A DNA stretch of 64,000 bases from Collinsella sp. An2 (GCF_002160065.1 NZ_NFJW01000001.1:186001-250000), one strand, 5' to 3'; counted from the stretch's first letter, positions 6,573 to 60,549 are shown. Numbers and translations: made by a program. Notes: a model not told the origin generated them from the letters alone.

Positions 6573-6649
6573 GTCCCCATCGTCTAGCGGTCTAGGACGT
6601 CGCCCTTTCAAGGCGAAGATCGCGGGTTCGAACCCCGCTGGGGGCACCA
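6573..6649 (+). tRNA. tRNA-Glu (anticodon TTC), CCA encoded
   Basis: A complete cloverleaf. The acceptor stem GTCCCCA pairs with TGGGGGC, the anticodon loop CTTTCAA gives TTC, the T arm is GCGGGTTCGAACCCCGC, and discriminator A is followed by encoded CCA (6647-6649). It is the insertion target of the prophage: the phage attachment core begins 11 bases after the CCA, and the 3' end of the phage integrase is read on the opposite strand through most of this gene. Confidence 0.97.
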
Positions 6650-8106
6650 CGCGAACACAGTGCGAACCCACCGCCGGGTTCGCACTTTTTTTGTGCCTCG
6701 AGCGCGAAGCGTATTTCCGCCAGATCTCCAACCTCGTCGCGGAAGTTGAAGCGCAGAAGAACGCAGTCCTCGAACAGGTAAGCCTCCCTGACAACGGCGC
6801 CAAATATCACGTCCTCGTCCGTCCGGTCGAACCCGTGCATCATGAACCCCACGATGTCATCCTCCGTGACCTCGCAAATCTGGCTCGCGAGGATTCCCCG
6901 GCGGTTGTGCAGGTTCTTCAGCTGTAGCTTTATCTCCTCGTTCCTGGAAACCATCTCGTCGTTCACGAAGCCCCTCATCGCAGCACTGGTGAGGTTGTGC
7001 TGCTCGCGCTCAAGCGCCGCGATCTGCTCCTCGACGGCATCCATCTCAGCCTGCTCCTCGCCGGGCTGCGCGTAGGCCTCGATGATGCGGTGGGCCATCA
7101 TGCGCATCTTCTCCTCGTCCGAACATACCTCCAGAACGGCCTCGGCTATGGAGTCCTCCACAAGTTCCCTGCGCACCCACGGGCGCCCGCAGCCCCCGTT
7201 CTCCTTGCACGCGTAGTAGTGGTAGCGCTTGCCCTTCTTCCCAGTCCCTGCGGTGCCGTGCATGGGCATCCCGCAGAACCCGCAGTAGAGCTTGCCCGTG
7301 AGTCTGTAAACGTCCCAGTTCTCGTTGGCCCTGCGCTTCTTGGGGACAACGGCCTGTGACTTCGCGAACGTTGCCTTGTCCACGATCTGCGGCATGCCGC
7401 CTTCGACCTCTATCCCGCCCCACGAGTAAAGTCCGGTGTAGGCTCGCTTGTTCAGGATGCGCCACGCCCAGTTGTAGTCCACCGGGCGTCCGGTCGTGGT
7501 TGTCCAGCCCCTCTGGGCCATCTCTCGGGCTATGGAGTTGACGCTGTGGCCATGGATGTGCATCTGGAACATCTCGCGCACGCAGGCGGCCTCTGCGTCG
7601 TTTATAACGTACCTTCTGGTGTCCGGGTCGGTGTCGTACCCGAAGATGCGGTAGCCGTTGTTCTGGGCCTTCAGGGCGTTGCCCTCCATGCCCCTACGTA
7701 CCTTGCGCGCCAAGTCCCTCACGTAGTACTCGCTCAGCAGTTCGAGCATACCCTCCTGCAACCCGCCCTCGGGGGTGTCCTCGACCTTCTCCGAGGCCGA
7801 GAGGACGCGCACGCCGCACTCGCGGAGCATCTTCTTGTAGGTCGCGGAGTCGTACCTGTCTCGGGAGAACCTGTCGAACATGTAGACAACGACGTAATCG
7901 CTCTCCGGCGCGTTGGCTATCATGCGCCGGAACTCAGGCCTGTGGTCGGTCTTCCCGGAGAGCGCATAGTCCGCGTATTCCGCAACTATGGCGATGTTCT
8001 CAGCCTTGCAGTAGTCCCTGCACACGCGCAGCTGATCGTCAATCGATGCCTCGCGCTGCTTGTCGCTGGAGTAGCGGGCGTACAGCACGGCCGTCTTCTG
8101 TGTCAT
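6592..8106 (-). CDS. int: Prophage large serine integrase
   Basis: A 504-residue large serine recombinase. The resolvase domain holds the catalytic serine in AVLYARYSSDKQREASIDDQ, plus VVVYMFDRFSRDRYD. A recombinase domain follows (NDAEAACVREMFQMHIHGHS), then a zinc ribbon (CGFCGMP with CKENGGCG) and a coiled coil (about residues 345-400) that controls directionality in this family. The start is ATG 8106 behind GGGGAAAGG on the minus strand. Its last 19 or so codons are read antisense through tRNA-Glu, so the C-terminal tail is made from host DNA in the lysogen. Confidence 0.95.
   Translation of the reverse strand: MTQKTAVLYARYSSDKQREASIDDQLRVCRDYCKAENIAIVAEYADYALSGKTDHRPEFRRMIANAPESDYVVVYMFDRFSRDRYDSATYKKMLRECGVRVLSASEKVEDTPEGGLQEGMLELLSEYYVRDLARKVRRGMEGNALKAQNNGYRIFGYDTDPDTRRYVINDAEAACVREMFQMHIHGHSVNSIAREMAQRGWTTTTGRPVDYNWAWRILNKRAYTGLYSWGGIEVEGGMPQIVDKATFAKSQAVVPKKRRANENWDVYRLTGKLYCGFCGMPMHGTAGTGKKGKRYHYYACKENGGCGRPWVRRELVEDSIAEAVLEVCSDEEKMRMMAHRIIEAYAQPGEEQAEMDAVEEQIAALEREQHNLTSAAMRGFVNDEMVSRNEEIKLQLKNLHNRRGILASQICEVTEDDIVGFMMHGFDRTDEDVIFGAVVREAYLFEDCVLLRFNFRDEVGDLAEIRFALEAQKKCEPGGGFALCSRGAPSGVRTRDLRLERATS
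6660..6669. other. Left prophage attachment core (attL), 10-bp repeat
   Basis: GTGCGAACCC occurs here and again at 42177-42186, the other end of the prophage. In both places GCACCA lies exactly ten bases upstream (at attL this is the tRNA end). The core is the left arm of a terminator hairpin at both junctions. The repeat and the hairpins are seen directly; its role as crossover site for the serine integrase next to it is inferred. Confidence 0.7.
6660..6692 (+). terminator. Terminator of tRNA-Glu built from the attL core plus phage DNA
   Basis: A perfect 10-bp stem, GTGCGAACCC with GGGTTCGCAC, has a six-base loop (ACCGCC) and is followed by seven T. The left arm is the attachment core and the right arm belongs to the phage, so the inserted phage appears to restore a terminator to the tRNA it displaced from its own. 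Confidence 0.8.
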
Positions 8107-8187
8107 AATTCGGTTGCCCCTTTCCGCACATGGGGTATTCACAGCCCCGGCGCTTGTCTGGCAGGACGTACGCGCCGGGGCGTTTCT

Positions 8188-28185: not shown

Positions 28186-30979
28186 CGGCGCAAACGTCGG
28201 TTCCGCATACGTCACCCTGTTCCCGTCCATGGACGGGTTCGCCGACGAGCTGAACAAGGAGTTCGGCCCTGCCGGCACCAGCGCGGGCAAGGACTTCGGG
28301 GACGGCCTCTCCTCCGGCGTCGAATCGGGCGCGTCGGACGCGAAGCAGGCCGTCTCCGGCCTTACCGACACGGCATCAAAGGAGGCGGAGTCCATGGGCT
28401 CCGCCCTCAAGTCCGCGATAAGCGACGCGGGCAAGTCAATCTCAAGCTCGCTCTCCGGCTCCGGCATGTTCGACGGCCTGACATCCAAGGCGAAGGCCGC
28501 GGCCGATGGCATCACGAGCGCCTTCTCCGGCGTCAGGTCGGGCGTGTCCTCCGCCCTCAGCGGGGTGCAGGGCGCCATCAAGTCGGGCCTCTCCGGCGCC
28601 GAGAGCGCCGCGAAGAGCGCGATGAGCAAGGCCGCTGACGCCATCCCGGCGCCCATGAAGGGCGTGGGGAGCAAGGTCAAGGGCGCCCTGTCTGACGTGA
28701 CATCGGCGGCCAAGGCCGCTGTCGGTGACCTCGCACCCGCTCTCAAGGCCGAGGCGAGCAGGGCGGCGGACGCCTTCAGCTCCGGCCTCAGCAACATCAA
28801 GTCATCCGTCACGTCCGCCTTCGGCGGAATCAAGGGCGCCATCGCCGGACTCGGCATCGGCGCCGCCATCACGGAGTCCATAAGCGCTGCCGCCGAGGCG
28901 CAAACCTACATGTCGCGCCTATCGGCATCCGCCGACGCCAACAGCGTGAGCACCAAGGCCATGAACGCCACGTACACCGACCTCATCGGCGTGCTGGGCG
29001 AGACGGACCGCGTGGTGGAGACCTCCGGAAACCTGTTCGCGCTGTGCGGTGACAACCAGCAGCAGCTCAAGAGCCTCACCACGTCGCTCACGGGCGCGTA
29101 CTCGCAGTTCGGTGACGGTATGCCCATCGAGGCGCTCGCCGAGGCCGCCAACGAGACGGCCAAGGCCGGCACGGTCACGGGCAGCTTCGCGGACGCCCTC
29201 AACTGGGTTAGCGCGAGCACGGAGCAGTGGGGCGCCGCCATGGGCGGCAACAGCGCCGCGCAGGCCGCCTTCAACGCGGCCCTCGAGCAGGGCATGACGA
29301 AGGAGGACGCCTTCAACGAGGCCCTCGCCGCGTGCACGTCGGAGCAGGAGCGCCAGCAGCTCGTTGTCTCGGCCATGAACGCGCTGTACGGCGAGGCGGG
29401 CCAGAAGTACCAGGAGGCCAACTCCGACCTAATCGCGTACAACCAGTCGCAGGATGCCATGGCAACGAGCGTCGCGAACTTCGGCTCAAAGCTGATGCCC
29501 GCTGCCACGCTGGTGACCACGTTCGCCAGCACGGTGCTGGACGCCCTCTCGAACATGATCCCGCCCATCGACGTGAGCGCCATCACGAACGCCTTCTCGA
29601 TGCTCGGAACGACGGTCATGACCATCCTCATGCCCGCCATCCAGCCCATCGTGGCCGCGCTCCAGAACATGGCGAACACGCTCGGGCCGCTCATCATGCC
29701 GCTCATACAGCAGATTCTCATCCTGCTCCAGAACCTCGCCACGGTGCTCGCGCCCGTCGCGGCCGTCGTGGGCCAGATCGTCGCGGCCGTCATCAACGCG
29801 GCCACGCAGATTCTGGCGTTCGTCATCCCGGTAATCACCCAGATTGTCGAGATCATCAACCAGAACATGCCGGCGATTCAGAACATCGTCACGACGGTCA
29901 TGGGAGCCATCCAGACGGTCATCCAGACGGCCCTCGGAATCATCCAGGGCATCTGGAACGCCATCTGGCCCACGCTCTCCACGTACGTCGAGGGCGTCAT
30001 GAACAACATCAAGATAGTCATCGAGACGGTTCTCGGCGTCATCCAAGGCATCATCACCACGGTCACCGGCCTCATCTCCGGTGACTGGGAGCAGGTCTGG
30101 GAGGGCATCAAGCAGATCGCCCAGAGCGTCTGGGACGGCATCAAGGGCCTTGTCGAGAACGCCATCAACACGGTGAAGAACGTCATCGACAGCGTTCTGA
30201 ACACCATCAGCTCCATCTGGGACTCCATCTGGAACACGGTGAGGTCCACGGCGGAGAGCATCTGGAGCGGAATCCAGAGCGCCATCGACAGCGCCATCAA
30301 CGCCGTGAAGGGGACCATCGACAACGTTCTCAGCAGCATCAAGAGCGCGTGGGACAGCACGTGGAACGGCATCAAGTCGTTCTTCAGCGACATCTGGAAC
30401 GGCATCAAGAGCGCTGCGCAGGACGGCGTGAACAACGTCTACAACACGGTGACCAACATCAAGGACCGCATCCTCGGCTTCTTCTCCGGTGCCGGCAGCT
30501 GGCTCGTGAACGCGGGCGCCAGCATCATCAACGGCCTGAAGGACGGCATCATGAACGCCGTGGGCGGCGTGGTGAACGCCGTCTCCGGGGCCGTGAGCAG
30601 GATCAGGAACCTGTTCCCGTTCTCGCCCGCGAAGGAAGGCCCCTTCTCCGGCCACGGCTACACCACGTACTCCGGCAAGGCCCTCATGGGTGACTTCGCC
30701 GAGAGCATCAGGGCGCAGGCAGGCAAGGTGGCTGCCGCCACGGCATCCGTCATGGACGTGGCCAAGAACGGCCTCACGGCGCAGCTCACGACGGCCCGCA
30801 CGGTCGCGATCCGCACGGACACGCGCGACGAGTACGGCGGCACGCTCGAGACCATCACCGAGCTGCTGCGCGCCATCGCGGAGAAGGACGGGGACGTTTA
30901 CATCGACGGCGCCAAGGTGTCGGCGGCAATCGCTCGCCGCTCCCTTGCAACTGCCACAGGAAGAGGGGTGAGGATGTGA
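28178..30979 (+). CDS. Tape measure protein
   Basis: 933 residues, the largest phage gene. An N-terminal Ser/Ala/Gly-rich helical part (about 1-210), a domain with QQQLKSLTTSLTGAYSQFGD, a hydrophobic centre (about 430-600), then repeated amphipathic IWDSIWNTVRS / IWNGIKSAAQDG segments and a C-terminal FPFSPAKEGPFSGHGYTTYS block typical of tape measures. By family rule its length sets tail length: very roughly 140 nm at 0.15 nm per residue. Confidence 0.95.
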   Translation: MADGANVGSAYVTLFPSMDGFADELNKEFGPAGTSAGKDFGDGLSSGVESGASDAKQAVSGLTDTASKEAESMGSALKSAISDAGKSISSSLSGSGMFDGLTSKAKAAADGITSAFSGVRSGVSSALSGVQGAIKSGLSGAESAAKSAMSKAADAIPAPMKGVGSKVKGALSDVTSAAKAAVGDLAPALKAEASRAADAFSSGLSNIKSSVTSAFGGIKGAIAGLGIGAAITESISAAAEAQTYMSRLSASADANSVSTKAMNATYTDLIGVLGETDRVVETSGNLFALCGDNQQQLKSLTTSLTGAYSQFGDGMPIEALAEAANETAKAGTVTGSFADALNWVSASTEQWGAAMGGNSAAQAAFNAALEQGMTKEDAFNEALAACTSEQERQQLVVSAMNALYGEAGQKYQEANSDLIAYNQSQDAMATSVANFGSKLMPAATLVTTFASTVLDALSNMIPPIDVSAITNAFSMLGTTVMTILMPAIQPIVAALQNMANTLGPLIMPLIQQILILLQNLATVLAPVAAVVGQIVAAVINAATQILAFVIPVITQIVEIINQNMPAIQNIVTTVMGAIQTVIQTALGIIQGIWNAIWPTLSTYVEGVMNNIKIVIETVLGVIQGIITTVTGLISGDWEQVWEGIKQIAQSVWDGIKGLVENAINTVKNVIDSVLNTISSIWDSIWNTVRSTAESIWSGIQSAIDSAINAVKGTIDNVLSSIKSAWDSTWNGIKSFFSDIWNGIKSAAQDGVNNVYNTVTNIKDRILGFFSGAGSWLVNAGASIINGLKDGIMNAVGGVVNAVSGAVSRIRNLFPFSPAKEGPFSGHGYTTYSGKALMGDFAESIRAQAGKVAAATASVMDVAKNGLTAQLTTARTVAIRTDTRDEYGGTLETITELLRAIAEKDGDVYIDGAKVSAAIARRSLATATGRGVRM

Positions 30980-31692
30980 GCAGGGAGACGCCCATATACT
31001 TCGACGGCAAAGACCTCAGCACGCTGCTGTGGGTCACCGGCGTGAAGCGCACCATCCTGCCCGAGCGCAACATCACCACGACGGAGGTTCCGGGCGTGGA
31101 CGGCTCCATGGTGAGTGGGGTCTCGCTGGCCCCGCTCACGGTAACGGTGACGGCGCACATCCGCAAGGACAGCGTGCAGGACGTGACGGACGCGCGGCGC
31201 CTCATCGCCGAGGCGCTCGCCACCGACACTCCGCGGCCGCTGTTCCTGCCGGACGAGCCGAACCGCTACCTCATGGCCATGTACCAGGGCGGAGCGGAGA
31301 TGTCGCGCAACGCGCACAAGCCCGGAGTGGAGCTGACGTTCTACTGCGCAGACCCGGTTTCGTACGGCGAGGAGCGCGCGCTCGACGTGACGGGCAGGCG
31401 CCCGGTGAACGTTCGCGGCACCTACCCGTGCAGGCCGACCATCACGGTGAAGCCGCCCCAGTCCGACGAGTGGCGCATCACGAAGGTGAGCACGCAGGAG
31501 TTCGTGGCCGTGGAGGGGCCGTTCACCGGTGAGCAGACTGTCGTTCTGGACACCGCCAACGAGCGCTGCACCATAAACGGCAACGACGTTCCCGTTGTGG
31601 TCAAGAGCGACTACTTCACGCTGCTGGGCACCGAGGAAATCGAGGTGTCGGGTGGGACCGCCCATCTGGAGTGGACGGAGAGGTGGCAGTGA
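30976..31692 (+). CDS. Distal tail protein (Dit-like)
   Basis: 238 residues. SRETPIYFDGKDLSTLLWV, then VPGVDGSMVSG and FYCADPVSYGEERALDV are Dit/gp37-like signatures; Dit forms the hub between tail tube and tip. GTG 30976 overlaps the tape measure stop. Confidence 0.87.
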   Translation: MSRETPIYFDGKDLSTLLWVTGVKRTILPERNITTTEVPGVDGSMVSGVSLAPLTVTVTAHIRKDSVQDVTDARRLIAEALATDTPRPLFLPDEPNRYLMAMYQGGAEMSRNAHKPGVELTFYCADPVSYGEERALDVTGRRPVNVRGTYPCRPTITVKPPQSDEWRITKVSTQEFVAVEGPFTGEQTVVLDTANERCTINGNDVPVVVKSDYFTLLGTEEIEVSGGTAHLEWTERWQ

Positions 31693-33899
31693 TGCGCATC
31701 GACGTGTACGACAGGCAGGACAACTACCTTCACACCATCGGGACGGGCGAGCTGATCGGCTTCGTCTGGACGGACGAGCTGAACGGCGAGGACAGCGTGG
31801 CCATCAGCACCACGTGGCCCATCGGCGAGGGCATGCGCCTCATCTGGAAGGACCGCACGAACACGGTCCACGAGCACGTGTGCCAAGACCCGCAGGCCAT
31901 CCGCGAGAGCGGCGACGTGTACTACACGGACACGGCGCTCAACTCCATCTGCGAGCTGTTCGGTGACTACATCGAAGACAAGAGACCATACGGATACACC
32001 TACGAGCTGGCGCTCACGGTGTGCCTCGAGCCCACGCGCTGGGAGGTCGGCACGGTTGACATGCCGGGCACGGTCTCCGAGTCGCTGACGTTCTACGCCA
32101 CGGACTGCCGCACGGCGCTCAACTCCATCCTGGAATCGGGCGGCGAGCTGGAGACGGAAATCGAGATGGGAGCCGGCGGAATCACCCGCAAGGTCGGCAT
32201 CCGCCAGCACAGGGGCCTCACCGGAGGCCACAGGCGCTTCAGCTACGGCAAGGATCTCGTGAGCATCACCCGCACGGAGCACTGGGGCGCGATAACGGCG
32301 TGCTACGGCTACGGCAAGGGCGTCGAGACGGACTCGGGGGGCTACGGGCGCAAGCTCACCTTCGCGGACATCAACGGCGGCAAGGCCTACGTGGAGGATG
32401 CCGAGGCGCTCGAGAAGTACGGAAGGCCTGACGGCAAGGGCGGGCTGGCCCATGTCTTCGGGACGTACGAGAACCAGAACTGCGAGGACGCGGAGCAGCT
32501 CAAGGCCGAGACGGAGGCCCACCTCCAGAGCCACAAGGAGCCTGGCGTAACGTACGAGGCGAGCGTGGTGGACCTGCTGGCCATGGGCCGCGAGTGGGAG
32601 GCCGTGGGCGTCGGCGATGACTGCCAGATCGTGGACAGGTCGTTTTCGCCCGCTCTCCGCTGCGAGGGCCGAGTCTCCAAGATGGTCACCGACATGCTGG
32701 GCGGCACCATCGAGGTGACGCTCGGCAACGTCGTGCAGACCATGGGAGACCTGCTGGCCAACCAGTCGCAGGAGCTGTCGAGTCTCAAGGAGCACTCCGC
32801 GCAGTGGGACGTGGCGGCATCGACGCCCCCGGCGTACCTCCAGCAGATAATGGACGGTCTGAACGCCGAGTTCAACAAGCAGGGCATGTCGTACAGGCAC
32901 ACCAGCTTCGAGAAGGGTGACATCTGGGCATCGGTGCCCATGGACAGCACCGGAAAGCCCACGGTGCCGGGCGGCACGGCCATCCAGATGTGCGCGCAGG
33001 GCTTCCGCATCGCGGACGGCACTCTGGCGGACGGAACGTGGGACTGGCAGGTGTTCGGCACCGGGCAGGGCTTCACGGCCAACGCCATCGTGGCGGGGAC
33101 CATCACGGGCGGCAACAGCCATTGGAACCTCGAGACCGGCGAGCTTCTGTTCAAGCAGGGCATGATAGCCGACACCAGCGGCAGGAACACGTGGAACCTC
33201 ACCACCGGTGACATGGCGCTGTCGGGTGACGTGACCATCTCCGGTGGAACCATCAGGGACGCCAGCGGCAGAAGCACGTGGAACCTGAGCACCGGTGACA
33301 TGGTGCTCGCGGGCAACCTCACGGTAAGAGGCGGCAAGATCATGGACGCATCCGGCCGCAACGTGTGGGACTTGGCCAACAGCAACATGAGCCTGGACAG
33401 CCCGAACACGAGCATCACGGGCGGCATCATCCGCGGCGCCGGGAACAACTACTGGAACCTCGACACGGGCGCCCTGAACCTCGACTTCATCCCGGACAGC
33501 GTGCAGACGCAGCTGAACCGGCTCGAGAGCGACGTGGAGGACGCCCAGTGGGACGCCACCATGGCCCGGAACGTCACCAACCGCATCAGCTTCACGTCGA
33601 ACGGCATGGAGATCGAGGGCACGAACGGCCAGACGCAGAGCGTGGCCACCTACACCTCGGAGGGCTTCGAGGTCGATGCCGAGACCTGCACCATCAGGAG
33701 CTCGACGGGCTCGCTGACGGTGAAGAACTGGGGCATGTACGGCGAGTTCGACAACAACGTTCGCATGTGGATCACGGACGGCTCGCGCTACGGCGGGGGC
33801 CATCACTTCCTCGCGAGCGGAGCGGACTACACGTTCATGGTCAACAAGGACGGCGCGTACTGGAACGGACAGAAGCTGGCAGTCGAGACCAGCGCGTAA
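31692..33899 (+). CDS. Tail-tip (Tal-like) protein with beta repeats
   Basis: 735 residues. The N-terminal 380 form a gp37/endopeptidase-like tail hub (RIDVYDRQDNYLHTIGTGEL). Then come four or five repeats of about 30 residues with the pattern GGxxxDxSGRxxWNLxTGDM (about residues 475-600), which should make a trimeric beta-helix, and a short C-terminal beta domain. ATG 31692 overlaps the Dit stop. Confidence 0.85.
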   Translation: MRIDVYDRQDNYLHTIGTGELIGFVWTDELNGEDSVAISTTWPIGEGMRLIWKDRTNTVHEHVCQDPQAIRESGDVYYTDTALNSICELFGDYIEDKRPYGYTYELALTVCLEPTRWEVGTVDMPGTVSESLTFYATDCRTALNSILESGGELETEIEMGAGGITRKVGIRQHRGLTGGHRRFSYGKDLVSITRTEHWGAITACYGYGKGVETDSGGYGRKLTFADINGGKAYVEDAEALEKYGRPDGKGGLAHVFGTYENQNCEDAEQLKAETEAHLQSHKEPGVTYEASVVDLLAMGREWEAVGVGDDCQIVDRSFSPALRCEGRVSKMVTDMLGGTIEVTLGNVVQTMGDLLANQSQELSSLKEHSAQWDVAASTPPAYLQQIMDGLNAEFNKQGMSYRHTSFEKGDIWASVPMDSTGKPTVPGGTAIQMCAQGFRIADGTLADGTWDWQVFGTGQGFTANAIVAGTITGGNSHWNLETGELLFKQGMIADTSGRNTWNLTTGDMALSGDVTISGGTIRDASGRSTWNLSTGDMVLAGNLTVRGGKIMDASGRNVWDLANSNMSLDSPNTSITGGIIRGAGNNYWNLDTGALNLDFIPDSVQTQLNRLESDVEDAQWDATMARNVTNRISFTSNGMEIEGTNGQTQSVATYTSEGFEVDAETCTIRSSTGSLTVKNWGMYGEFDNNVRMWITDGSRYGGGHHFLASGADYTFMVNKDGAYWNGQKLAVETSA

Positions 33900-33908
33900 G
33901 GAGGAGAA

Positions 33909-35804
33909 ATGGCACTTTTCACGTTCACGCTCGACATGTACAAGGGGCCGCGAGTCGGCGAGCCGGTGTACATCCGAGTGGGAGACAAGAGCACCTGCGA
34001 GGTCAGGGCCACCATCACCGAGGACGGCATCCCCAAGGAGCTTGACGGCCTCCAGGCGCGCTTCGAGTGCTTCAAGCCGGACGGCCACGTGGTCATCTCG
34101 GAGCCGTTCGACGTGGAGGGGAGCGTCATCGAGTACGCGATGCCGGAGCAGGTGTCTCTGGCAGAGGGCCGCATCTCGCTGGCCTACTTCTCGCTCATCG
34201 ACTCGACGGGGCACATCGACACCACGCAGAGCTTCGAGATCATCGTGGAGCCGGGCGCCTCCGGAGGTGACATCAGCTCGAGCGACTACATCGGCGAGAT
34301 CGACGCGCTGCTCCGCCTCATGGAGAACCAGCGCCGCGAGTACGACGCCGCGGAGGACGCGCGCGCGGAGGCCGAGGACGGCCGCGTGACCGCCGAGCAG
34401 GGCCGCGTCGAGGCCGAAAACGCGCGAGTCGAGGCCGAGAACGCCCGAGCCGAGGCGGACAAGACGTGGAACGCCAACGAGGAGACGCGCAAGGCGAACG
34501 AGGCGGCGCGCGTGGCCGCAGAGCAGGGCCGCGCATCCGCCGAGGCGCAGCGCGTCGAGAACGAGCAGGAACGCCAAAGCGCAGAGAGCGCCCGCGCGTC
34601 GGCGGAGAGCCAGCGCGAGGCATCCGAGACCGCACGCGACACGGCGGAGGGCCAGCGCGCATCTGCCGAGCAGGCGCGCCAGACCGCCGAGACCGCGCGA
34701 GACTCCGCGGAGGACGCCCGAGCGGAGGCGGAGCAGGCCCGCGCGTCGGCAGAGACCGCCCGCGCATCAGCCGAGGGCGAGCGGGCGCAGGCCGAGACCG
34801 AGCGCAAGTCGGCCGAGACCGAGCGCGACACGGCAGAGGACGCCCGCGCCGCGGCGGAGGCACAGCGCGTCGAGAACGAGACCGCCCGCCAGAGCGCAGA
34901 GTCGGCACGCGCGCAGGCCGAGCAGGCGAGGGCAACCGCGGAGCAAGCGCGGGCGGACGCGCAGGATGACCGCGACGCGCGACAGGACCAGAATGACGCG
35001 GACCAAGCGAAGAACAACGCGGAACAGGCAGCTAACAACGCCGCGGCGCTGGGCATGACGTTCGTGATCCTCACCTCCGGCCAGTACGACCCCGAGACGC
35101 TCGAGCCGACCATCGAGGGCGAGAACGGCAAGATGTACCTCGTCCCCGACCCGAAGGGCGGCGAGGATGACGTGTACTCGGAGTGGATATGGGTCGAGAC
35201 CACCAAGAGCTTCGAGCACATGGGCAGTACCACCACGAGCTTCGACCCGATGAGCACCAACGACATCGACGCCGTGACCTCGGACCAGTCACCGACCGGT
35301 GACCGCGTGCTCAACCTGACGGGCCTGAGCTACCTGTGGGCGAAGCTCAAGGGCGCCTTCGCGGCCCTGACGCACACCCACACGAGGGCGCAGATCACGG
35401 ACTTCCCCGCGAGCATGCCCGCATCCGACGTGAGCGCATGGGCCAAGGCGCCGGAGAAGCCGACCTACACGCCGCAGGAGGTGGGGGCGGCCGCGGCCCA
35501 GCACTCGCACGCCGTGGCCGACGTGACCGGCCTCAGCGACACACTGGCAGGCCTACAGAAGCGCTCGACCTACGCGACGGTGGCCATCCAGCCCGCGGAC
35601 TGGCAGGGCACGACCTGCACCAAGCAGGTCTCCGGCGTCACGGCCGACTCCATCGTGCGGTGCGGCGCGGCGCCCGAGAGCGAGATAGCGGCGAGCGAGG
35701 CGCACGTCTACTGCTCGGCTCAGGGCGCTGGGACGCTCACCTTCAGCTGCGTGACGGTCCCCGCAGCGGCGGTGACCATGAACATCGAGGTTTGGGAGGC
35801 ATAG
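33909..35804 (+). CDS. BppU-like baseplate/fibre protein with long heptad stalk
   Basis: 631 residues. The N-terminal BppU-like domain (FTLDMYKGPRVGEPVYIRVG, about 1-115) anchors to the tail tip. About residues 135-380 are an uninterrupted 7-residue repeat of the type AExARxSAE, giving a very long trimeric coiled coil. A collagen-free C-terminal head contains HTHTRAQITDFPASMP (fibre motif) and a beta domain. It directly precedes the DGR target gene and probably carries or adjoins it. Confidence 0.85.
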   Translation: MALFTFTLDMYKGPRVGEPVYIRVGDKSTCEVRATITEDGIPKELDGLQARFECFKPDGHVVISEPFDVEGSVIEYAMPEQVSLAEGRISLAYFSLIDSTGHIDTTQSFEIIVEPGASGGDISSSDYIGEIDALLRLMENQRREYDAAEDARAEAEDGRVTAEQGRVEAENARVEAENARAEADKTWNANEETRKANEAARVAAEQGRASAEAQRVENEQERQSAESARASAESQREASETARDTAEGQRASAEQARQTAETARDSAEDARAEAEQARASAETARASAEGERAQAETERKSAETERDTAEDARAAAEAQRVENETARQSAESARAQAEQARATAEQARADAQDDRDARQDQNDADQAKNNAEQAANNAAALGMTFVILTSGQYDPETLEPTIEGENGKMYLVPDPKGGEDDVYSEWIWVETTKSFEHMGSTTTSFDPMSTNDIDAVTSDQSPTGDRVLNLTGLSYLWAKLKGAFAALTHTHTRAQITDFPASMPASDVSAWAKAPEKPTYTPQEVGAAAAQHSHAVADVTGLSDTLAGLQKRSTYATVAIQPADWQGTTCTKQVSGVTADSIVRCGAAPESEIAASEAHVYCSAQGAGTLTFSCVTVPAAAVTMNIEVWEA

Positions 35805-35806
35805 GA

Positions 35807-37489
35807 ATGATCTTCAACAGCATCGGAGGCGGGGGAGGAACCCCGAAGCTCAACTTCGACACGCCGTACGGCACGGCGCCCGAGACAATCGAAGCGACGT
35901 TCGAGAAGCCGGCAGACCCGAGCCAGCAGGGCTTCGTCTTCGGCGGATGGTACGTGGACGCGACGCTCCAGACGCCCTACGTGTGGGGCTCGGAGGCGCG
36001 GAACGCGACGCTCCACGCAAAGTGGGCCATCGAGCAGCCCACGGTGGCGCCCGCCACGCCCGGCACCTACGACGGCACTGCCAAGAGCCTCGGCACGGTG
36101 ACGGCCAAGGGAGCGGGCCAGGCGGTCGAGTACCAGCTCGACGGCGGGGGCTGGACATCGACGGCGCCCACGGCCACGAACGCCGGAACCTACACGGTGG
36201 GCTGGCGCGTCACGGCCGAGCACTGCGACGCGCTCACGGGCAGCTTCTCGGTGACCATCGAGGCCGCCGAGATCCAGGCATCCGTGAGCGGCACGGAGAC
36301 CACCTACACCGGCTCCGCGGTGAAGGCCAACGCCGTCACGGTCACGGCGCCGGCATCCGGCTACGAGCTGCGCTACGGCACCTCCGCGGGGACGTACGAC
36401 CTCACCGAGCCGCCGAGCTTCACGAACGCGGGCTCGCACACGGTCTACTACCGCATCACGGCCCCGAACTACGAGACCAAGACGGGCGCGTACACGGTGG
36501 CCATCGCCAAGGCGTCGTGCGGCCTCTCCATCCAGCCCTCGAGCATGACGGTCAAGGAGGGCGAGGGCAACGGTACCATCACGGTGACGCGCACCGGAAA
36601 CGGCGCCATCACCGCATCCGCAAACCCGGCGAACCTCTGCACGCTCTCCGTGAGCGGGAACACAGTGACGGTTGCCTACGCGGACGCCGGAACCGCGACG
36701 GTCACGGTGCAGGTCGCGGAGACGGCCAACTACCTCGGCGGCTCCGCCACGTGCACGGTCGAGCTGGAGTCCGCGCTCGAGATCGTCACGTGGGCCAGCG
36801 GAACGGACGAGCAGATTGCCGCCATGGTCGCTGCCGCGGACGCGGGCCAGATCAACCTCAGCGACTACTGGCACGCGGGGGACACCCGCACGGTGCGCCT
36901 GTCTGCGATGCAGCGCGGGGCAGTCGGCGAGACCCACGCGGCGCAGAACGTGCAGTTCGTGCTCAACGACGCCGGGCACTTCACGCTCGCGAACGGGAAG
37001 AAGTGCAACTTCGTGGTGCACCAGAAGGACTGCCTCAGCGAGTACGGCTACATGAACAGCTCGAACACGAACAACGGCGGATGGAACAGCTGCGCGCGAC
37101 GCACGTGGTGCAACGAGACGTACCGCAACGCCATCCCGGCATCGCTGCGCGGCATCTTCAAGCAGTTCAAGACGAGGGCGGCCAATGGGTCGGGCTCGTC
37201 AGCCGTCGAGAGCACCGACTACTTCGCGCTGCCCTCCGAGAAGGAGGTCTTCGGCTCCATCACATACTCCAACTCCTCGGCGGAGAGCCAGAACACGCAG
37301 TTCCAGTACTACAAGACGGCATCAAACCGCATCAAGAAACTCGGCATCAACGGCAGCGCCTGCTGGTGGTGGGAGCGCTCGCCTTACAGCGGCGACTCCG
37401 GCTACTTCTGCCGTGTGAACAGCGGCGGCACTGCCGGCGCCAGCAGTGCCAGCTACGCGACCGGTCTGGCGCCCTTCGGCTGCATCTAA
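35807..37489 (+). CDS. DGR target protein: tail receptor-binding protein with variable C-type lectin-like end
   Basis: 560 residues. About 15-75 is an InlB/Flg_new-type repeat (GGWYVDATLQTPYVWGSEAR). About 80-310 hold YDG/MBG-type and other Ig-like beta domains. About 320-560 is a DUF6273/C-type-lectin-like domain (NFVVHQKDCLSEYGYMNSSN, YFALPSEKEVFG). The last 44 residues (516-559), WWWERSPYSGDSGYF to LAPFGC, are the variable repeat. ATG 35807 follows GGAGGC. Expected at the tail tip, where variation would change host binding. Confidence 0.93.
   Translation: MIFNSIGGGGGTPKLNFDTPYGTAPETIEATFEKPADPSQQGFVFGGWYVDATLQTPYVWGSEARNATLHAKWAIEQPTVAPATPGTYDGTAKSLGTVTAKGAGQAVEYQLDGGGWTSTAPTATNAGTYTVGWRVTAEHCDALTGSFSVTIEAAEIQASVSGTETTYTGSAVKANAVTVTAPASGYELRYGTSAGTYDLTEPPSFTNAGSHTVYYRITAPNYETKTGAYTVAIAKASCGLSIQPSSMTVKEGEGNGTITVTRTGNGAITASANPANLCTLSVSGNTVTVAYADAGTATVTVQVAETANYLGGSATCTVELESALEIVTWASGTDEQIAAMVAAADAGQINLSDYWHAGDTRTVRLSAMQRGAVGETHAAQNVQFVLNDAGHFTLANGKKCNFVVHQKDCLSEYGYMNSSNTNNGGWNSCARRTWCNETYRNAIPASLRGIFKQFKTRAANGSGSSAVESTDYFALPSEKEVFGSITYSNSSAESQNTQFQYYKTASNRIKKLGINGSACWWWERSPYSGDSGYFCRVNSGGTAGASSASYATGLAPFGCI
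37352..37484 (+). repeat. DGR variable repeat (VR)
   Basis: 133 bases aligned without gaps to the template repeat at 38023-38155 (offset 671). There are 20 differences and every one is at a template adenine (A to G, T or C); no other template base differs. The 3' constant part GGTCTGGCGCCCTTCGG serves as the initiation-of-mutagenic-homing region. It ends five bases before the stop of the target gene. Confidence 0.95.
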
Positions 37490-37504
37490 AAATCGTGTAA
37501 TCCG

Positions 37505-37519
37505 CCGACGTTACGTCGG
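37505..37519 (+). promoter_or_regulatory. Hairpin/cruciform just after VR
   Basis: CCGACG TTA CGTCGG: a six-base GC-rich stem with a three-base loop, 20 bases past the end of VR. Known DGRs carry a short hairpin or cruciform at this place that promotes homing. A run of nine G (37521-37529) follows. Confidence 0.65.
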
Positions 37520-37583
37520 AGGGGGGGGGTGGCCGAGTTTTAATTAGCGGGAGAGCCGCGACGAGGACATGAAGGGAGGAGCG

Positions 37584-38024
37584 GTGTCGGTAAACGTCGA
37601 GGACAGGGATGAGTCGAAGGTCGAGTACCTTGAGGTAGCGCGCCAGATCAGCAAGCGCACGGCGCAGATGGTATCGAACGGGCCGCGCAAGTACCTAACG
37701 ACCTACGGTGACCACCTGATGAGATGCAGCCTGAACATGTTCACCCACGTGGACATAGCCAACTCCATCTACGTGACGTGCCAGGTTGACTACGAGGCGC
37801 GCCGGAAGCACCTGCTGGAGGCGCGCGGGATGTGCTTCAGCATCGAATCGACGGCGAAGTTGTACACCGACCTGATAACGGCAGCGGGCACTGTCGGCAG
37901 GGATAAGGCCTACGGGCGCCTTGCCGACATCGCCCGGCTGTGCCACAAGGAGCGCGGACTCATCAAGGGCGTGCTGGACTCGGACAAGAAACGGTACAAT
38001 GCGAACAAGGCCACAGCCCGATAA
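37584..38024 (+). CDS. avd: DGR accessory protein Avd
   Basis: 146 residues, four-helix-bundle type, very basic: VEYLEVARQISKRTAQMVS, LMRCSLNMFTHVDIANSIYV, EARRKHLLEARGMCFSIEST and ARLCHKERGLIKGVLDSDKK. Avd binds the reverse transcriptase and template RNA. GTG 37584 has AAGGGAGGA just before it and is preferred over ATG 37569. The stop lies in the first bases of the template repeat. Confidence 0.88.
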   Translation: MSVNVEDRDESKVEYLEVARQISKRTAQMVSNGPRKYLTTYGDHLMRCSLNMFTHVDIANSIYVTCQVDYEARRKHLLEARGMCFSIESTAKLYTDLITAAGTVGRDKAYGRLADIARLCHKERGLIKGVLDSDKKRYNANKATAR

Positions 38025-38155
38025 CAGCGCCTACTGGTGGTGGGAGCGCTCGCCTAACAGCGGCAACTCCAACAACTTCTGCAATGTGAACAGCGACGGC
38101 ACTGCCAACGCCAACAATGCCAGCAACACGAACGGTCTGGCGCCCTTCGGAAGCA
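38023..38155 (+). repeat. DGR template repeat (TR)
   Basis: The invariant donor copy. In the target frame it contains 12 AAY codons, the classic choice because mutating the two adenines gives many residues but never a stop. In VR 11 of these 12 are changed (to Gly, Tyr, Asp, Arg, Ser, Thr). It lies between avd and the reverse transcriptase, same strand, and its frame stays open into the reverse transcriptase. Confidence 0.95.
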
Positions 38156-38214
38156 CCTCGGCAACCAGGGACGGTAGCGAAAGCGAAGTCAAAGGTAGCA
38201 TCCGATATACCGAG

Positions 38215-39351
38215 ATGCAGGGGGCTGTGACCTTGGCCGGAGACGGCCTAAATAGGCGCCGCCACGCCGGGGAGGCTGGGACTCACCTGCTGCAAAAGGG
38301 CGGCATCGTCCGCTTCGATGAGGTGTTCACCTTCGAGCACCTCTACGAAGCGGGCACCGCGTGCTGCAACGGCGTGCGCTGGAAGGCATCGACGCAGATC
38401 TTCGAGGCCCGCCTCCCGTCGTGGGCCACCACGGTGCAGGACCAGCTCATGGACGGCACATGGCGCTCTCCCGGCTTCAACAAGTTCACCATCATGGAGC
38501 GCGGCAAGGTCCGCGACATCCAAGCCGTGCACATCGCCGAGCGCATGGTGCAGAAGTGCCTCGTGCGCTACTGCCTGCGACCGCTCGTCCTGCCGAGGCT
38601 CATATACGACACGCACGCCACGGTGCCCGGGCACGGCACGGAGCAGGCCCTCGCCCGCCTGAAGGAGCACCTGCGCTGGCACTACGCCAGATACGGGCAG
38701 GAGGGCTACGTGGTCACGATGGACTACCACAACTACTTCGGAAGCATCCTTCACGCCAAGCTCATCGAGATGTACGGGCGCCTGCCAATGGACGATAGGC
38801 TTCTGGGCCTCACCGCCTACCTCATCGACTGCTTCGACGGTGACCGCGGGCTGGGCCTCGGCTCCGAGGTTAGCCAGGTGTCGGCCGTCTTCTACGTGTC
38901 ACCGGTGGATCACGTGGCCAAGGACCGGCTGGGCGTGCACTGCTACGGGCGGTACATGGATGACTCGTACGCCATCCTCCCGACCAAGGCGCAGGCGGAC
39001 GAGCTGATGCGCGCCGTCAGGGCGAAGTCAGAGGAGCTGGGCCTGACCTTCAACGAGAAGGTCACCAAGGTGCGGCCGCTCAGGCACGGCTTCCGCTACC
39101 TCAAGAAGCGCGTGAGCCTCACGGAGACGGGCAAGATCGTGATGCGCCCGCAGCGCGACAACATCGTGCGCGAGCGCCGCAGGCTCAGGCACAACGTGCA
39201 GTCCGTGCTCGCCGGTGACATGAGGCCCGAGACCGAGCTGCAATCGTGGGAGTCGTGGAAGAGCCATTGCCTCACGCTCGACGCCCACAGGACGGTGACG
39301 GAGATGGAGGCGTACCGCCAGAGGCTCCTCGAGGACGCCGTGCTGGCCTAA
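38215..39351 (+). CDS. DGR reverse transcriptase
   Basis: 378 residues from ATG 38215. Palm motifs: VVTMDYHNYFGSIL (first catalytic Asp), GLGLGSEVSQVSAVFYVSPV with the SQ motif typical of DGR and group II-like RTs, YGRYMDDSYAIL (YMDD), LGLTFNEKVTKV and FRYLKKRVSLT. All catalytic residues are present. The start is uncertain: no strong ribosome site precedes it, and the frame is open upstream through TR. Confidence 0.94.
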   Translation: MQGAVTLAGDGLNRRRHAGEAGTHLLQKGGIVRFDEVFTFEHLYEAGTACCNGVRWKASTQIFEARLPSWATTVQDQLMDGTWRSPGFNKFTIMERGKVRDIQAVHIAERMVQKCLVRYCLRPLVLPRLIYDTHATVPGHGTEQALARLKEHLRWHYARYGQEGYVVTMDYHNYFGSILHAKLIEMYGRLPMDDRLLGLTAYLIDCFDGDRGLGLGSEVSQVSAVFYVSPVDHVAKDRLGVHCYGRYMDDSYAILPTKAQADELMRAVRAKSEELGLTFNEKVTKVRPLRHGFRYLKKRVSLTETGKIVMRPQRDNIVRERRRLRHNVQSVLAGDMRPETELQSWESWKSHCLTLDAHRTVTEMEAYRQRLLEDAVLA

Positions 39352-40656: not shown

Positions 40657-40891
40657 CAAGGTCATCTACTGGCTCGTGGCGGCGCTCGTGCGCGCGCTCA
40701 AGACCGCATGCCAGACGGCCGTGGCCCTCATCGGAACGGAGATGGTGGCCATCACATCGCTCGACTGGACGCAGATCGCGGCAGTCTCGGCCACGGCCTT
40801 CGTGCTCTCGGTGCTCACCAGCATCGCCGGAGTGCCCGAGGTGCAGGAGGGCGAGAGCCTGCCCAAGCTCGCGAAGGGGGCGAAGGAATGA
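40646..40891 (+). CDS. Holin, r1t-like
   Basis: 81 residues, two hydrophobic helices (VIYWLVAALVRALKTACQ and IAAVSATAFVLSVLTSIA), charged C-terminus, directly before the endolysin with an ATGA overlap. ATG 40646 follows GGAGAAGGAA. Confidence 0.8.
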   Translation: MDGSKVIYWLVAALVRALKTACQTAVALIGTEMVAITSLDWTQIAAVSATAFVLSVLTSIAGVPEVQEGESLPKLAKGAKE

Positions 40892-41949
40892 ACTTCGAGA
40901 CCTGCGAGGCCGATGTCAACCTCATCCTGAGCAAGCACTTCACCGAGGGGCGCGGCGGGCATCAGGTCGATAAGATCGTGGTGCACTACAACGCGGGCAA
41001 CCTGACGTGCGAGGGCTGCTTCAGCGTGTGGCAGAACCGCGAGGCATCCGCACACTATCAGGTGGAGAGCAACGGCCGCGTCGGCCAGCTCGTCTGGGAC
41101 CGCGACACCGCGTGGCACTGCGGAGTCTTCAGCCAGAACCAGCGCAGCATCGGCATCGAGCACGCCAACCTGAGCGACGGCACCATCACGGAGACGTGCC
41201 TCGACACCGGAGCGCACCTCGTGGCCGCGCTATGCAAGATGTACGGCCTCGGCCGCCCGGAGTGGCTCGTCAACGTCTACCCGCACAAGCACTTCTCGCC
41301 AACATCGTGCCCGGGCCAGATCTACGGCAGCCAGAAGGACGCCTACATCCAGCGCGCCCAGCACTGGTACGACGTGATGACCGGCGCCATCCAGCCCGAG
41401 CCGGAGGAGCCCGCGACGCCCCTGCCGGACGCGCTCAAGGGCTTCCAAGACCTCGACCCGAACGCATGGTACGTCTCGGCCATCGAGGAGTGCGTGCTCC
41501 AGGGCTACATGTCCGGCTACGACTCCGCGCACTTCGGCCCCACGGACCACATCACCCGCGGGCAGGCCGTGTGCGCCATCTCCAACGCTGCGCGCGCGGA
41601 CCTCACCGAGATCCTCGAGCCGTTCAAGGACGTGGCGCCATCGCCCTACTACTACACCGCGGTGTGCTGGGCGGTGCAGGAGGGCATCGTCTCCGAGCAG
41701 GAGAACTTCCGCCCGGACGATGCCGCCACGAGGGCCGAGATGTGCGTCATGCTCTGCAACTGGCAGCACGGCGAGAGCGTCGGCCAGCCCACGGGCTACC
41801 CCGACTGGCCCGAGGTGCCCGAGTGGGCGCAGGAGGCAGTGGCATGGGCCGTCGAGCAGGGCGTCATCTCCGGTTCCGGAGGGAAGCTCAACCCCAACCA
41901 GCCGTGCACGCGCGCCGAGGCGGCCGCGATGCTCGCCAACCTCCTCTAG
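40888..41949 (+). CDS. Endolysin: N-acetylmuramoyl-L-alanine amidase with three SLH domains
   Basis: 353 residues. The amidase_2 domain (about 1-165) has the zinc ligands in KIVVHYNAGN, SIGIEHANLSDG and CPGQIYGS. After a Pro/Glu linker come three SLH repeats (about 185-353: DLDPNAWYVSAIEECVLQGY; ITRGQAVCAISN; EWAQEAVAWAVEQGVISG). SLH domains bind pyruvylated wall polymers, so the lysin is matched to a host with SLH-anchored surface proteins, as seen at 56942. Confidence 0.93.
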   Translation: MNFETCEADVNLILSKHFTEGRGGHQVDKIVVHYNAGNLTCEGCFSVWQNREASAHYQVESNGRVGQLVWDRDTAWHCGVFSQNQRSIGIEHANLSDGTITETCLDTGAHLVAALCKMYGLGRPEWLVNVYPHKHFSPTSCPGQIYGSQKDAYIQRAQHWYDVMTGAIQPEPEEPATPLPDALKGFQDLDPNAWYVSAIEECVLQGYMSGYDSAHFGPTDHITRGQAVCAISNAARADLTEILEPFKDVAPSPYYYTAVCWAVQEGIVSEQENFRPDDAATRAEMCVMLCNWQHGESVGQPTGYPDWPEVPEWAQEAVAWAVEQGVISGSGGKLNPNQPCTRAEAAAMLANLL

Positions 41950-42239: not shown

Positions 42240-42411
42240 GCTGGCGCCTCATCATCACCACTCCGATGCCAATCGATGTGCTCGCCTCATCACCGCGCCG
42301 TCGTCGACTGTTGCACGGCCGTCGCGTCACCTCACCGTCGAGGTCGTCCATCGCGCGGCTACCTCATCATCGCTCCGCCGAGGTTGTCCGTCGTGCGACC
42401 GCCTCATCATC
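42240..42411. repeat. Degenerate CCTCATCATC repeats
   Basis: CCTCATCAyC or a close variant occurs at about 42247, 42285, 42330, 42362 and 42402. The clearest pair is a 40-base unit (GAGGTCGTCCATCGCGCGGC at 42340 and GAGGTTGTCCGTCGTGCGAC at 42380). No coding frame is convincing. Confidence 0.55.
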
Positions 42412-42422
42412 CCAAACTTAGT

Positions 42423-42490
42423 CCAGCAACTACCTTTGACTAAGAAAAGCCGAAAAATCAGGCCAATTGTTAGTCAAATATAGTTGCTGG
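42423..42490. repeat. Long inverted repeat with 21-base arms
   Basis: CCAGCAACTA cc TTTGACTAA (42423-42443) is matched by TTAGTCAAA ta TAGTTGCTGG (42470-42490): 19 of 21 paired, 26-base loop. AT-rich compared with its surroundings. It adjoins tandem copies of AGTTGCTGGTCTACTTTT at 42482 and 42502 and a variant near 42540. Confidence 0.8.
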
Positions 42491-42602
42491 TCTACTTTTT
42501 GAGTTGCTGGTCTACTTTTGCAAAAAGATGGTCAATGGCAGTCGCTGGACTACAGCCCCGCCGGTGAACGTCCCTCAGCGCAACGCGCCCGCTTGGCCTC
42601 GC

Positions 42603-56495: not shown

Positions 56496-56902
56496 CGCCG
56501 GGGGTTCCCTCATCGCCCGCCACTGATCTGAAAGGTCTTTCCGCAGCTGGGGAGGCCTTTTTGCGTTCTGCATAAACGTGTTTTTTAGCACTCGATAGCA
56601 CATCGGTACCTAACTGTTCGCTTTCGAGCATGACGTTGCGAGCGGCTGCGCTGTTCTGCGGCAATTCGCACGCACGAATTCTATATTGCGGCAATCCGCA
56701 CGCTCAGGGCCCCGATATGGGTACTCGAGCGTGTGGATTGCCGCAATATATGCGCTCCGTCGGTCTCGTCCGTGTATATTGCCGCAATTTGGGCGCTGCG
56801 GTCGCGACCGTTCGGACGCCAGGGGCGCCATTCGGACAAAGGCGCTTGCGACGAGGTATTTTTTCCGATACGTTGAGGAAATCCAGTATGTCCACGCTGT
56901 TT
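56496..56902 (+). repeat. 407-base direct repeat, right copy
   Basis: Same content as the left copy with scattered substitutions. It starts four bases after the ATPase stop and ends 39 bases before the start of the surface-protein gene, so it supplies that gene's upstream region. Confidence 0.9.
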
Positions 56903-56941
56903 GCGTGCGTACAAGACAGCTAAGGAAAGGCCGGTGCCGCC

Positions 56942-59900: not shown

Positions 59901-60549
59901 CGGGAGCGTCTCCCTGAGGCTCTCCCATGCCAGCCAGTACGCTATCGTCATCGATAAGGTCGGCCACGCGCTGCCGTTTGCGGACGCGTCCGAGGGCGAG
60001 TGGTACTCGGAGCCCGTCCGCTGGACGTGGCTCCACGGCGTCATGACCGGCTACGACGACGGGTCGAACCTCTTCGGCACGGAGGACGCCCTCACGCGCG
60101 CCCAGCTCGCGGCGACGCTCTACAAGGCCGCCGGCTCGCCCGCGGCCGACCCCGCCGGTGTAGAGAGGTACTCCGACTGCGCCTACGGCGCCTGGTACGC
60201 GGAGGCGGTCTCCTGGGCAACCGACCAGGGCCTCATGACCGGTTACGACGACGGCTCCGGCCGCTTCGCGCCTGACGCTCCGCTCACGCGCGAGCAGCTT
60301 GCCGTGGTCTTCTGGCGCGCCGCGGGCTCGCCTGCGGCCGAGGCGGACCTCGGCGCCTTCCTCGACGGCGGCGAGACGTCCTCGTGGGCGAGGCCGGCGG
60401 TCATATGGGCGGTCTCCACGGGCCTGCTCAAGGGGTACGGCAACACCGGCGAGCTCGACCCCGCGGGCACCCTCACCCGCGCCCAGGCGGCGACGGTGCT
60501 CTACCGCCTCGCCACGGAGGGAGCGGACGAGACTCTCGGCTCCCGCTAG
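56942..60549 (+). CDS. Giant SLH surface protein, phase-off by one base in a poly-G tract
   Basis: ATG 56942 (AAGGAAAGG ahead) reads MFRSAIEIMFGGG and then hits TAG after nine G (56972-56980). With ten G the same start runs on through a signal peptide (MLAVVVLMVLAACIAVAVSG) for about 1202 residues. The other in-frame start, ATG 57016, lacks a ribosome site and a basic n-region. Domains: parallel beta-helix with MYGGTI repeats (about 75-250), Ig/MBG-type domains (about 340-810), a Gly/Ser linker, a small domain, and three C-terminal SLH repeats (FADASEGEWYSEPVRWTWLH onward). Wall-anchored adhesin-like protein. Confidence 0.85.
56972..56980 (+). repeat. Homopolymer of nine G inside the surface-protein start
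   Basis: Lies 30 bases after ATG 56942. Nine G puts the ATG out of frame with the 3.5-kb frame; ten (or seven) would join them. Position and length match contingency loci known from other bacteria. Confidence 0.85.

What the first reader, a model, noticed from the sequence alone, without database searches (positions are those of the whole stretch)
35807..39351. Complete diversity-generating retroelement in a prophage, with all 20 VR/TR differences at adenines
Seen: VR (37352-37484) and TR (38023-38155) align over 133 bases without gaps; 20 substitutions, all at template adenines, none elsewhere. Eleven of 12 AAY codons are changed. An Avd-like gene and an RT with intact YMDD lie alongside, all on one strand. 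Known: DGRs mutate adenines during cDNA synthesis and target C-type-lectin-like ends of tail proteins (BPP-1 Mtd). Inferred: this phage switches hosts or receptors by retargeting its tail tip; the surface-protein decorated host wall is the likely ligand.
Basis: partly seen in the sequence, partly recalled or inferred. Interest (0 to 1): 0.92.

Follow-up and report, generated by a model that had tools for sequence, protein, structure and literature searches.

The report
Prophage diversity-generating retroelement, ordinary type
A dormant virus in this bacterial chromosome carries a complete, well-known type of self-mutating cassette that uses a reverse transcriptase to rewrite the tip of one predicted tail protein; it is a genuine and probably working example, but close to textbook.

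Summary
VR 37352-37484 and TR 38023-38155 align over 133 bp without gaps. All 20 differences sit at TR adenines (p about 3e-14), and 11 of 12 AAY codons differ. One refinement: only 18 of the 20 lie in the mutable core. The last two (37480-37481) fall in the 3' initiation zone (IMH/IMH*); the first is the same fixed C(VR)/A(TR) mismatch in every relative compared, and a C/T mismatch follows at 37485.

The gene order, target-Avd-TR-spacer-RT, is that of Bordetella phage BPP-1. The RT carries the DGR signature LGSEVSQ and YMDD and matches BPP-1 Brt. The small protein folds like Avd. The target ends in DUF6273, a recurrent DGR target domain. The element lies in a siphovirus prophage next to tRNA-Glu.

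Activity could not be tested on this phage, because the only other public copy found is identical. In a related phage, two contigs differ at exactly 20 of 8,362 bases, all in VR and all at TR adenines.

This is a new member of a known kind. Host switching and the wall ligand remain inference. The one mildly new point is that the spacer RNA matches neither Rfam DGR-type family.

The parts
35807..37489 (+). DGR target gene (560 aa): Flg_new repeat (aa 16-72), Ig/YDG-like linker region, C-terminal DUF6273 (aa 416-556) containing VR
   Evidence: Pfam and PHROG matches; homologous to targets of Faecalibacterium phages Taranis, Roos and Pioen; DUF6273 in 9 of 10 aligned targets
37352..37484 (+). Variable repeat (VR); mutable core up to about 37461, then the GC-rich initiation (IMH) zone with mismatches at 37480-37481
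   Evidence: alignment with TR; fixed C/A mismatch in relatives
37502..37522 (.). Candidate target-recognition hairpin/cruciform: CCGACG-TTA-CGTCGG with flanking CC/GG pairs, 17 bases after VR
   Evidence: z -1.0, weak alone; stronger hairpins of 8-13 bp in the corresponding place in most relatives
37569..38024 (+). avd-like accessory gene (151 aa), stop codon overlapping the first 2 bases of TR
   Evidence: PHROG 3206 'Avd protein of DGR' 2.7e-4, matched by 8 of 9 relatives; AF2 four-helix bundle, pLDDT 86; Z 14.4 to BPP-1 Avd in 8ub8 and Z 13.0 in 4dwl
38023..38155 (+). Template repeat (TR), 36 adenines; no adenine change can create a stop codon in the VR frame
38156..38280 (+). Spacer of the template RNA (equivalent of BPP-1 Sp); conserved motifs shared with L010, L043, L019 and L020
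   Evidence: no Rfam match
38281..39351 (+). DGR reverse transcriptase (core; exact start codon uncertain, frame open upstream)
   Evidence: PHROG 1423 4e-69; PDB 8ub7 (BPP-1 Brt) 2.4e-13; LGSEVSQ and YMDD
6592..8142 (-). Large serine integrase of the prophage, at the tRNA-Glu end
30976..35804 (+). Dit (30976-31692), Tal-like tail protein (31671-33899), BppU_N protein (33909-35804): tail-tip module directly upstream of the target

Best explanation
This is a complete, intact and probably functional diversity-generating retroelement of the BPP-1 layout inside a siphovirus prophage. The TR-spacer transcript is bound by the RT-Avd complex and copied with errors opposite adenines. The cDNA, homing through the shared GC-rich initiation zone and the downstream hairpin, replaces VR at the 3' end of the target gene and so randomises about 15 residues of a C-type-lectin-like (DUF6273) domain on a predicted tail or receptor-binding protein. 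Shown here: the parts, adenine specificity, no second VR, and recent adenine-only VR change in a related phage. Inferred: activity in this prophage, the lectin fold, the tail position of the target, and receptor retargeting.
For: VR/TR pair with adenine-only differences. RT homologous to Brt (hhalign 99.6%; 8ub7 2.4e-13) with DGR motif LGSEVSQ and YMDD. Avd-like fold and PHROG 3206. Same order and spacing as BPP-1. 24 related loci with TR/VR pairs in which 82-100% of differences (100% in most) are at TR adenines. Contigs L021 and L023: 20 differences in 8,362 bp, all in VR, all at TR adenines, TR identical. TR codons cannot mutate to stops. The insertion site lacks the prophage in two same-genus genomes. 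DGR activity published for phages Roos and Pioen (PMC11792537), whose targets are homologous to this one.
Against: The only other copy of this phage found in public viral contigs is from one isolate and identical, so no change was seen in this phage itself. The hairpin after VR is short, with a 3-base loop unlike the GRNA consensus. The target structure model failed. No profile-profile similarity of the Avd or the target to the BPP-1 proteins by sequence.
Confidence: 0.95

Rival explanations
1. A decayed or silenced DGR: the 18 substitutions record past activity, but the element no longer homes, for example because the short hairpin or spacer RNA is impaired.
For: Weak hairpin (6 bp, TTA loop, z -1.0); spacer not recognised by Rfam models that match most relatives; no VR variation available for this phage.
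Against: All ORFs open, YMDD and DGR motif intact, TR free of codons that could become stops; the spacer is conserved with L010 and L043; no non-adenine differences in the VR core.
Confidence: 0.12
2. An ordinary duplicated gene segment (recombination or gene conversion cassette) without retrohoming, with the A bias due to chance or base composition.
For: Direct repeats next to a gene are common (general knowledge; no tool result favours this).
Against: p about 3e-14 for adenine restriction; same pattern in 24 relatives; linked DGR-type RT and Avd.
Confidence: 0.01
3. The RT is a group II intron, retron or antiviral (DRT) enzyme and its place beside the repeats is coincidental.
For: NCBIfam lists weak matches to group II RT, Drt and retron models, all far below their cut-offs.
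Against: Best solved relative is BPP-1 Brt; LGSEVSQ motif; TR/VR and Avd in nearly every related RT locus.
Confidence: 0.01

Closest known systems
Bordetella phage BPP-1 DGR (mtd-avd-TR-brt)
   Same: Gene order, VR at the 3' end of the target, avd stop abutting TR, 133/134-bp repeats, spacer of about 125-145 nt, RT family, Avd fold, adenine-only substitutions
   Different: Target unrelated to Mtd by sequence; RT about 26% identical; hairpin loop TTA, not GRNA; spacer does not match Rfam Phage_DGR, which the BPP-1 spacer does
Faecalibacterium phages Roos, Pioen and FP_Taranis (DUF6273 targets; DGR activity shown for Roos and Pioen, PMC11792537)
   Same: Homologous target with C-terminal DUF6273, homologous RT (about 34-35%), gut prophages
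   Different: Spacer RNA of Roos is RT-2, RF03077; this one is not
Eggerthella lenta prophage DGRs, clades 2, 3, 4, 7 and 10 (PMC8778435)
   Same: mtd-avd-TR-ert architecture in high-GC gut actinobacterial prophages; activity seen in a lysogen (DSM2243phi4)
DGR of the Eggerthellaceae MAG RGIG4335 prophage (L010)
   Same: Closest RT in the genome collection (57%), same layout, homologous DUF6273 target and spacer RNA
   Different: Tail genes upstream of its target differ; 10-bp GTTA-loop hairpin
Tentaclins (PMC10743442)
   Same: DUF6273 / C-type-lectin domain hypermutated by a DGR, combined with Ig-like repeats
   Different: Here the lectin-like domain is C-terminal; in tentaclins it is N-terminal

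Membership tests
Diversity-generating retroelement | TR/VR near-repeat with differences confined to TR adenines | tested here: met
   20 of 20 at A; 18 of 18 in the core
Diversity-generating retroelement | DGR-clade reverse transcriptase ([LIVMF]GxxxSQ, YxDD) | tested here: met
   LGSEVSQ and YMDD; PDB 8ub7 and Brt matches; no tree built
Diversity-generating retroelement | Accessory Avd-type four-helix-bundle protein | tested here: met
   PHROG 3206; AF2 and VIA Z 14.4 to BPP-1 Avd, with the caveat that helical bundles score high in general
Diversity-generating retroelement | GC-rich initiation zone at the 3' end with fixed IMH/IMH* mismatches | tested here: met
   Shared GGTCTGGCGCCCTTCGG, then C(VR)/A(TR) in all relatives compared
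Diversity-generating retroelement | Hairpin/cruciform shortly downstream of VR | tested here: inconclusive
   6-bp stem, TTA loop, z -1.0; clear hairpins in most relatives
Diversity-generating retroelement | Structured spacer RNA after TR | tested here: inconclusive
   z -1.6; motifs shared with four relatives; no Rfam match; own model hit E 0.002 but tied with a chance hit
Diversity-generating retroelement | VR changes in populations while TR stays constant | tested here: inconclusive
   Met in related phage L021/L023; for this phage only one isolate sequence was found
C-type-lectin-fold DGR target | VR displayed on a C-type-lectin fold | tested here: inconclusive
   DUF6273 is C-lec by published models (PMC10743442); own model pLDDT 40.6
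BPP-1-type tropism switching | Receptor specificity changes with VR | not testable with these tools
   Needs phage and host experiments
Rfam RT-2 RNA (RF03077) | Covariance-model match in the TR-RT spacer | tested here: not met
   met in most other relatives

The most novel reading that the evidence does not exclude
The template-RNA spacer of this DGR and its nearest relatives (L010, L043, L019, L020) is a distinct structured RNA type, neither RT-2 (RF03077) nor Phage_DGR (RF03022), possibly paired with a divergent, non-GRNA recognition hairpin. That would make this a sub-lineage of DGR ribonucleoprotein that current RNA models miss.
Probability: 0.35. Interest if true: 0.35.

Novelty: new member of a known kind. 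Interest (0 to 1): 0.25.

Why it matters
It adds a complete DGR from a sequenced genome to a class known largely from metagenomes, and its target domain (DUF6273) recurs across gut phages of unrelated hosts. The related contigs L021 and L023 show the mechanism in action with no background differences. The link between Rfam RT-2 RNA and the TR-RT spacer in most of the relatives gives that RNA family a concrete role to test.

Tried and rejected
Second VR elsewhere in the genome: none. The TR reads open in frame with the RT (TTG 37921 to 39351), suggesting a TR-RT fusion; rejected as chance, since no other locus has an RT frame open through TR. Full-length AF2 of the target: unusable, so no fold search was run with it. 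Searches of target and Avd against PDB sequences: nothing relevant. hhalign of the Avd and target profiles with BPP-1 Avd and Mtd: nothing. A spacer RNA model built without the window hit the right place at E 0.002, but a chance hit elsewhere scored the same. Direct repeats as attachment sites: only 11-16-bp chance matches, as expected for a serine integrase. Exact patterns for sister phages with other VRs: only the same isolate.

Full report
What is there. Given 36 adenines in 133 positions the chance of this is 2.7e-14. No other copy occurs in the window or the 2.54-Mb genome, and the genome has a single RVT_1 gene.

A correction to the count. The alignment consists of a mutable part and a 3' initiation zone. 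After the last AAY codon (37460-37462) VR and TR share GGTCTGGCGCCCTTCGG, then differ at 37480-37481 (AA in TR, CT in VR) and again at 37485 (C in TR, T in VR), the last just outside the reported interval. In every other DGR compared (L010, L011, L012, L013, L019, L020, L021, L023, L024, L025) the first base after the shared tract is likewise C in VR and A in TR. In the same phage with two different VRs (L021 and L023) it is C in both. It is therefore best read as the fixed IMH/IMH* type of mismatch known from BPP-1 (PMC3240598), not mutagenesis. The mutagenised substitutions number 18, still far beyond chance (3.7e-13).

The machinery. RT 38281-39351: PHROG 1423 at 4e-69, best solved relative the BPP-1 RT in 8ub7 at 2.4e-13, hhalign 99.6% with Brt, DGR motif LGSEVSQ and YMDD. 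Avd-like 37569-38024: PHROG 3206 in 8 of 9 members of its alignment; AF2 gives a confident four-helix bundle (pLDDT 86), whose best solved matches are S23-type bundles and BPP-1 Avd (Z 14.4, 2.1 A over 112 residues for 8ub8; Z 13.0 for 4dwl). Helical bundles score high in general, so this supports but does not prove the assignment. The BPP-1 record fetched here has the same order and nearly the same spacing: VR 134 bp, avd ending at the base before TR, 144-base spacer, brt.

The target. 35807-37489 starts 2 bases after a BppU_N protein, itself after Tal-like and Dit genes, so it belongs to the tail-tip operon by position. Its C-terminal domain is DUF6273 (3e-14), shared by 9 of 10 DGR targets aligned; the targets of Faecalibacterium phages Taranis, Roos and Pioen are homologous to it. 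Published models assign DUF6273 targets to the C-type-lectin fold (PMC10743442). My own model was too poor to test this. None of the TR codons can be turned into a stop by changing adenines, as expected of a template kept for diversification.

The prophage. A serine integrase lies at tRNA-Glu, with terminase, protease, capsid, tape measure, Dit, Tal and endolysin in order. In two same-genus genomes tRNA-Glu is followed after about 0.55-0.65 kb by the sequence found here at 42.6 kb, with no prophage between.

Is it active? Not testable on this phage: the one other public copy found (IMG/VR 2788500618) is identical over 9,669 bases, and pattern scans found no sister phage. Twenty-four related loci from phages and genomes all have adenine-directed TR/VR pairs, and 13 of 67 genomes of the host's family (this one included) carry a homologous RT. 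Published work shows DGR activity in Roos and Pioen (PMC11792537) and in an E. lenta lysogen (PMC8778435).

Mechanism. Following current knowledge of BPP-1 (PMC3240598, PMC12875486), the TR transcript with its 3' spacer recruits RT-Avd, is copied with errors at adenines, and the cDNA replaces VR, guided by the initiation zone and a downstream hairpin. Here the hairpin candidate (37502-37522) is weak (z -1.0) and has a TTA loop; most relatives have 8-13 bp hairpins with varied loops, so the GRNA loop is not universal in this group.

The spacer RNA. In 17 of the related loci and in the annotated phages Shimadzu and Roos the segment right after TR matches Rfam RT-2 (RF03077); in BPP-1 it matches Phage_DGR (RF03022). 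The window spacer matches neither, and neither do L010, L043, L019, L020 and L037. The window and L010 spacers share motifs and similar predicted folds, but statistical support is weak (z -1.6; own model inconclusive). This is the only part I would call possibly new.

Verdict. A true, complete DGR of a known kind in a prophage.

Noticed in passing
L029:1189-1413, L021:5684-5910, L024:5771-5948, L057:5691-5911 and others: Rfam RT-2 RNA (RF03077) lies between TR and RT in 17 related DGR loci plus phages Shimadzu and Roos, which suggests that RT-2 is the DGR template-RNA spacer.
   Followed up: partly
L021/L022 versus L023: Near-identical phage contigs from different metagenomes that differ only in VR: 20 of 20 differences at TR adenines, a clean natural record of recent DGR activity.
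   Followed up: yes
window 37921-39351: The RT reading frame is open through TR in the VR frame, giving a possible TR-RT fusion ORF; not conserved in relatives.
   Followed up: yes
window 42408-42500: A roughly 85-bp sequence just right of the prophage has many dispersed copies in this genome, some matching on both strands at the same place (palindromic repeat family).
   Followed up: no
window 40765-41949: Phage endolysin: amidase_2 plus three SLH domains, presumably for binding the host wall polymer. The host protein 56686-60549 also carries SLH and YDG domains.
   Followed up: no
L067:1763-1783 and L068:1763-1783: In two same-genus genomes without the prophage, a 21-bp copy of the tRNA-Glu 3' end sits about 165 bp after the tRNA, perhaps another tRNA or an old attachment site.
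   Followed up: no
G020:C6 (L030, L040) and G018 (L033, L041): Single genomes of the host family with two DGR-type RTs each; in G020 they are 6 kb apart on opposite strands.
   Followed up: no
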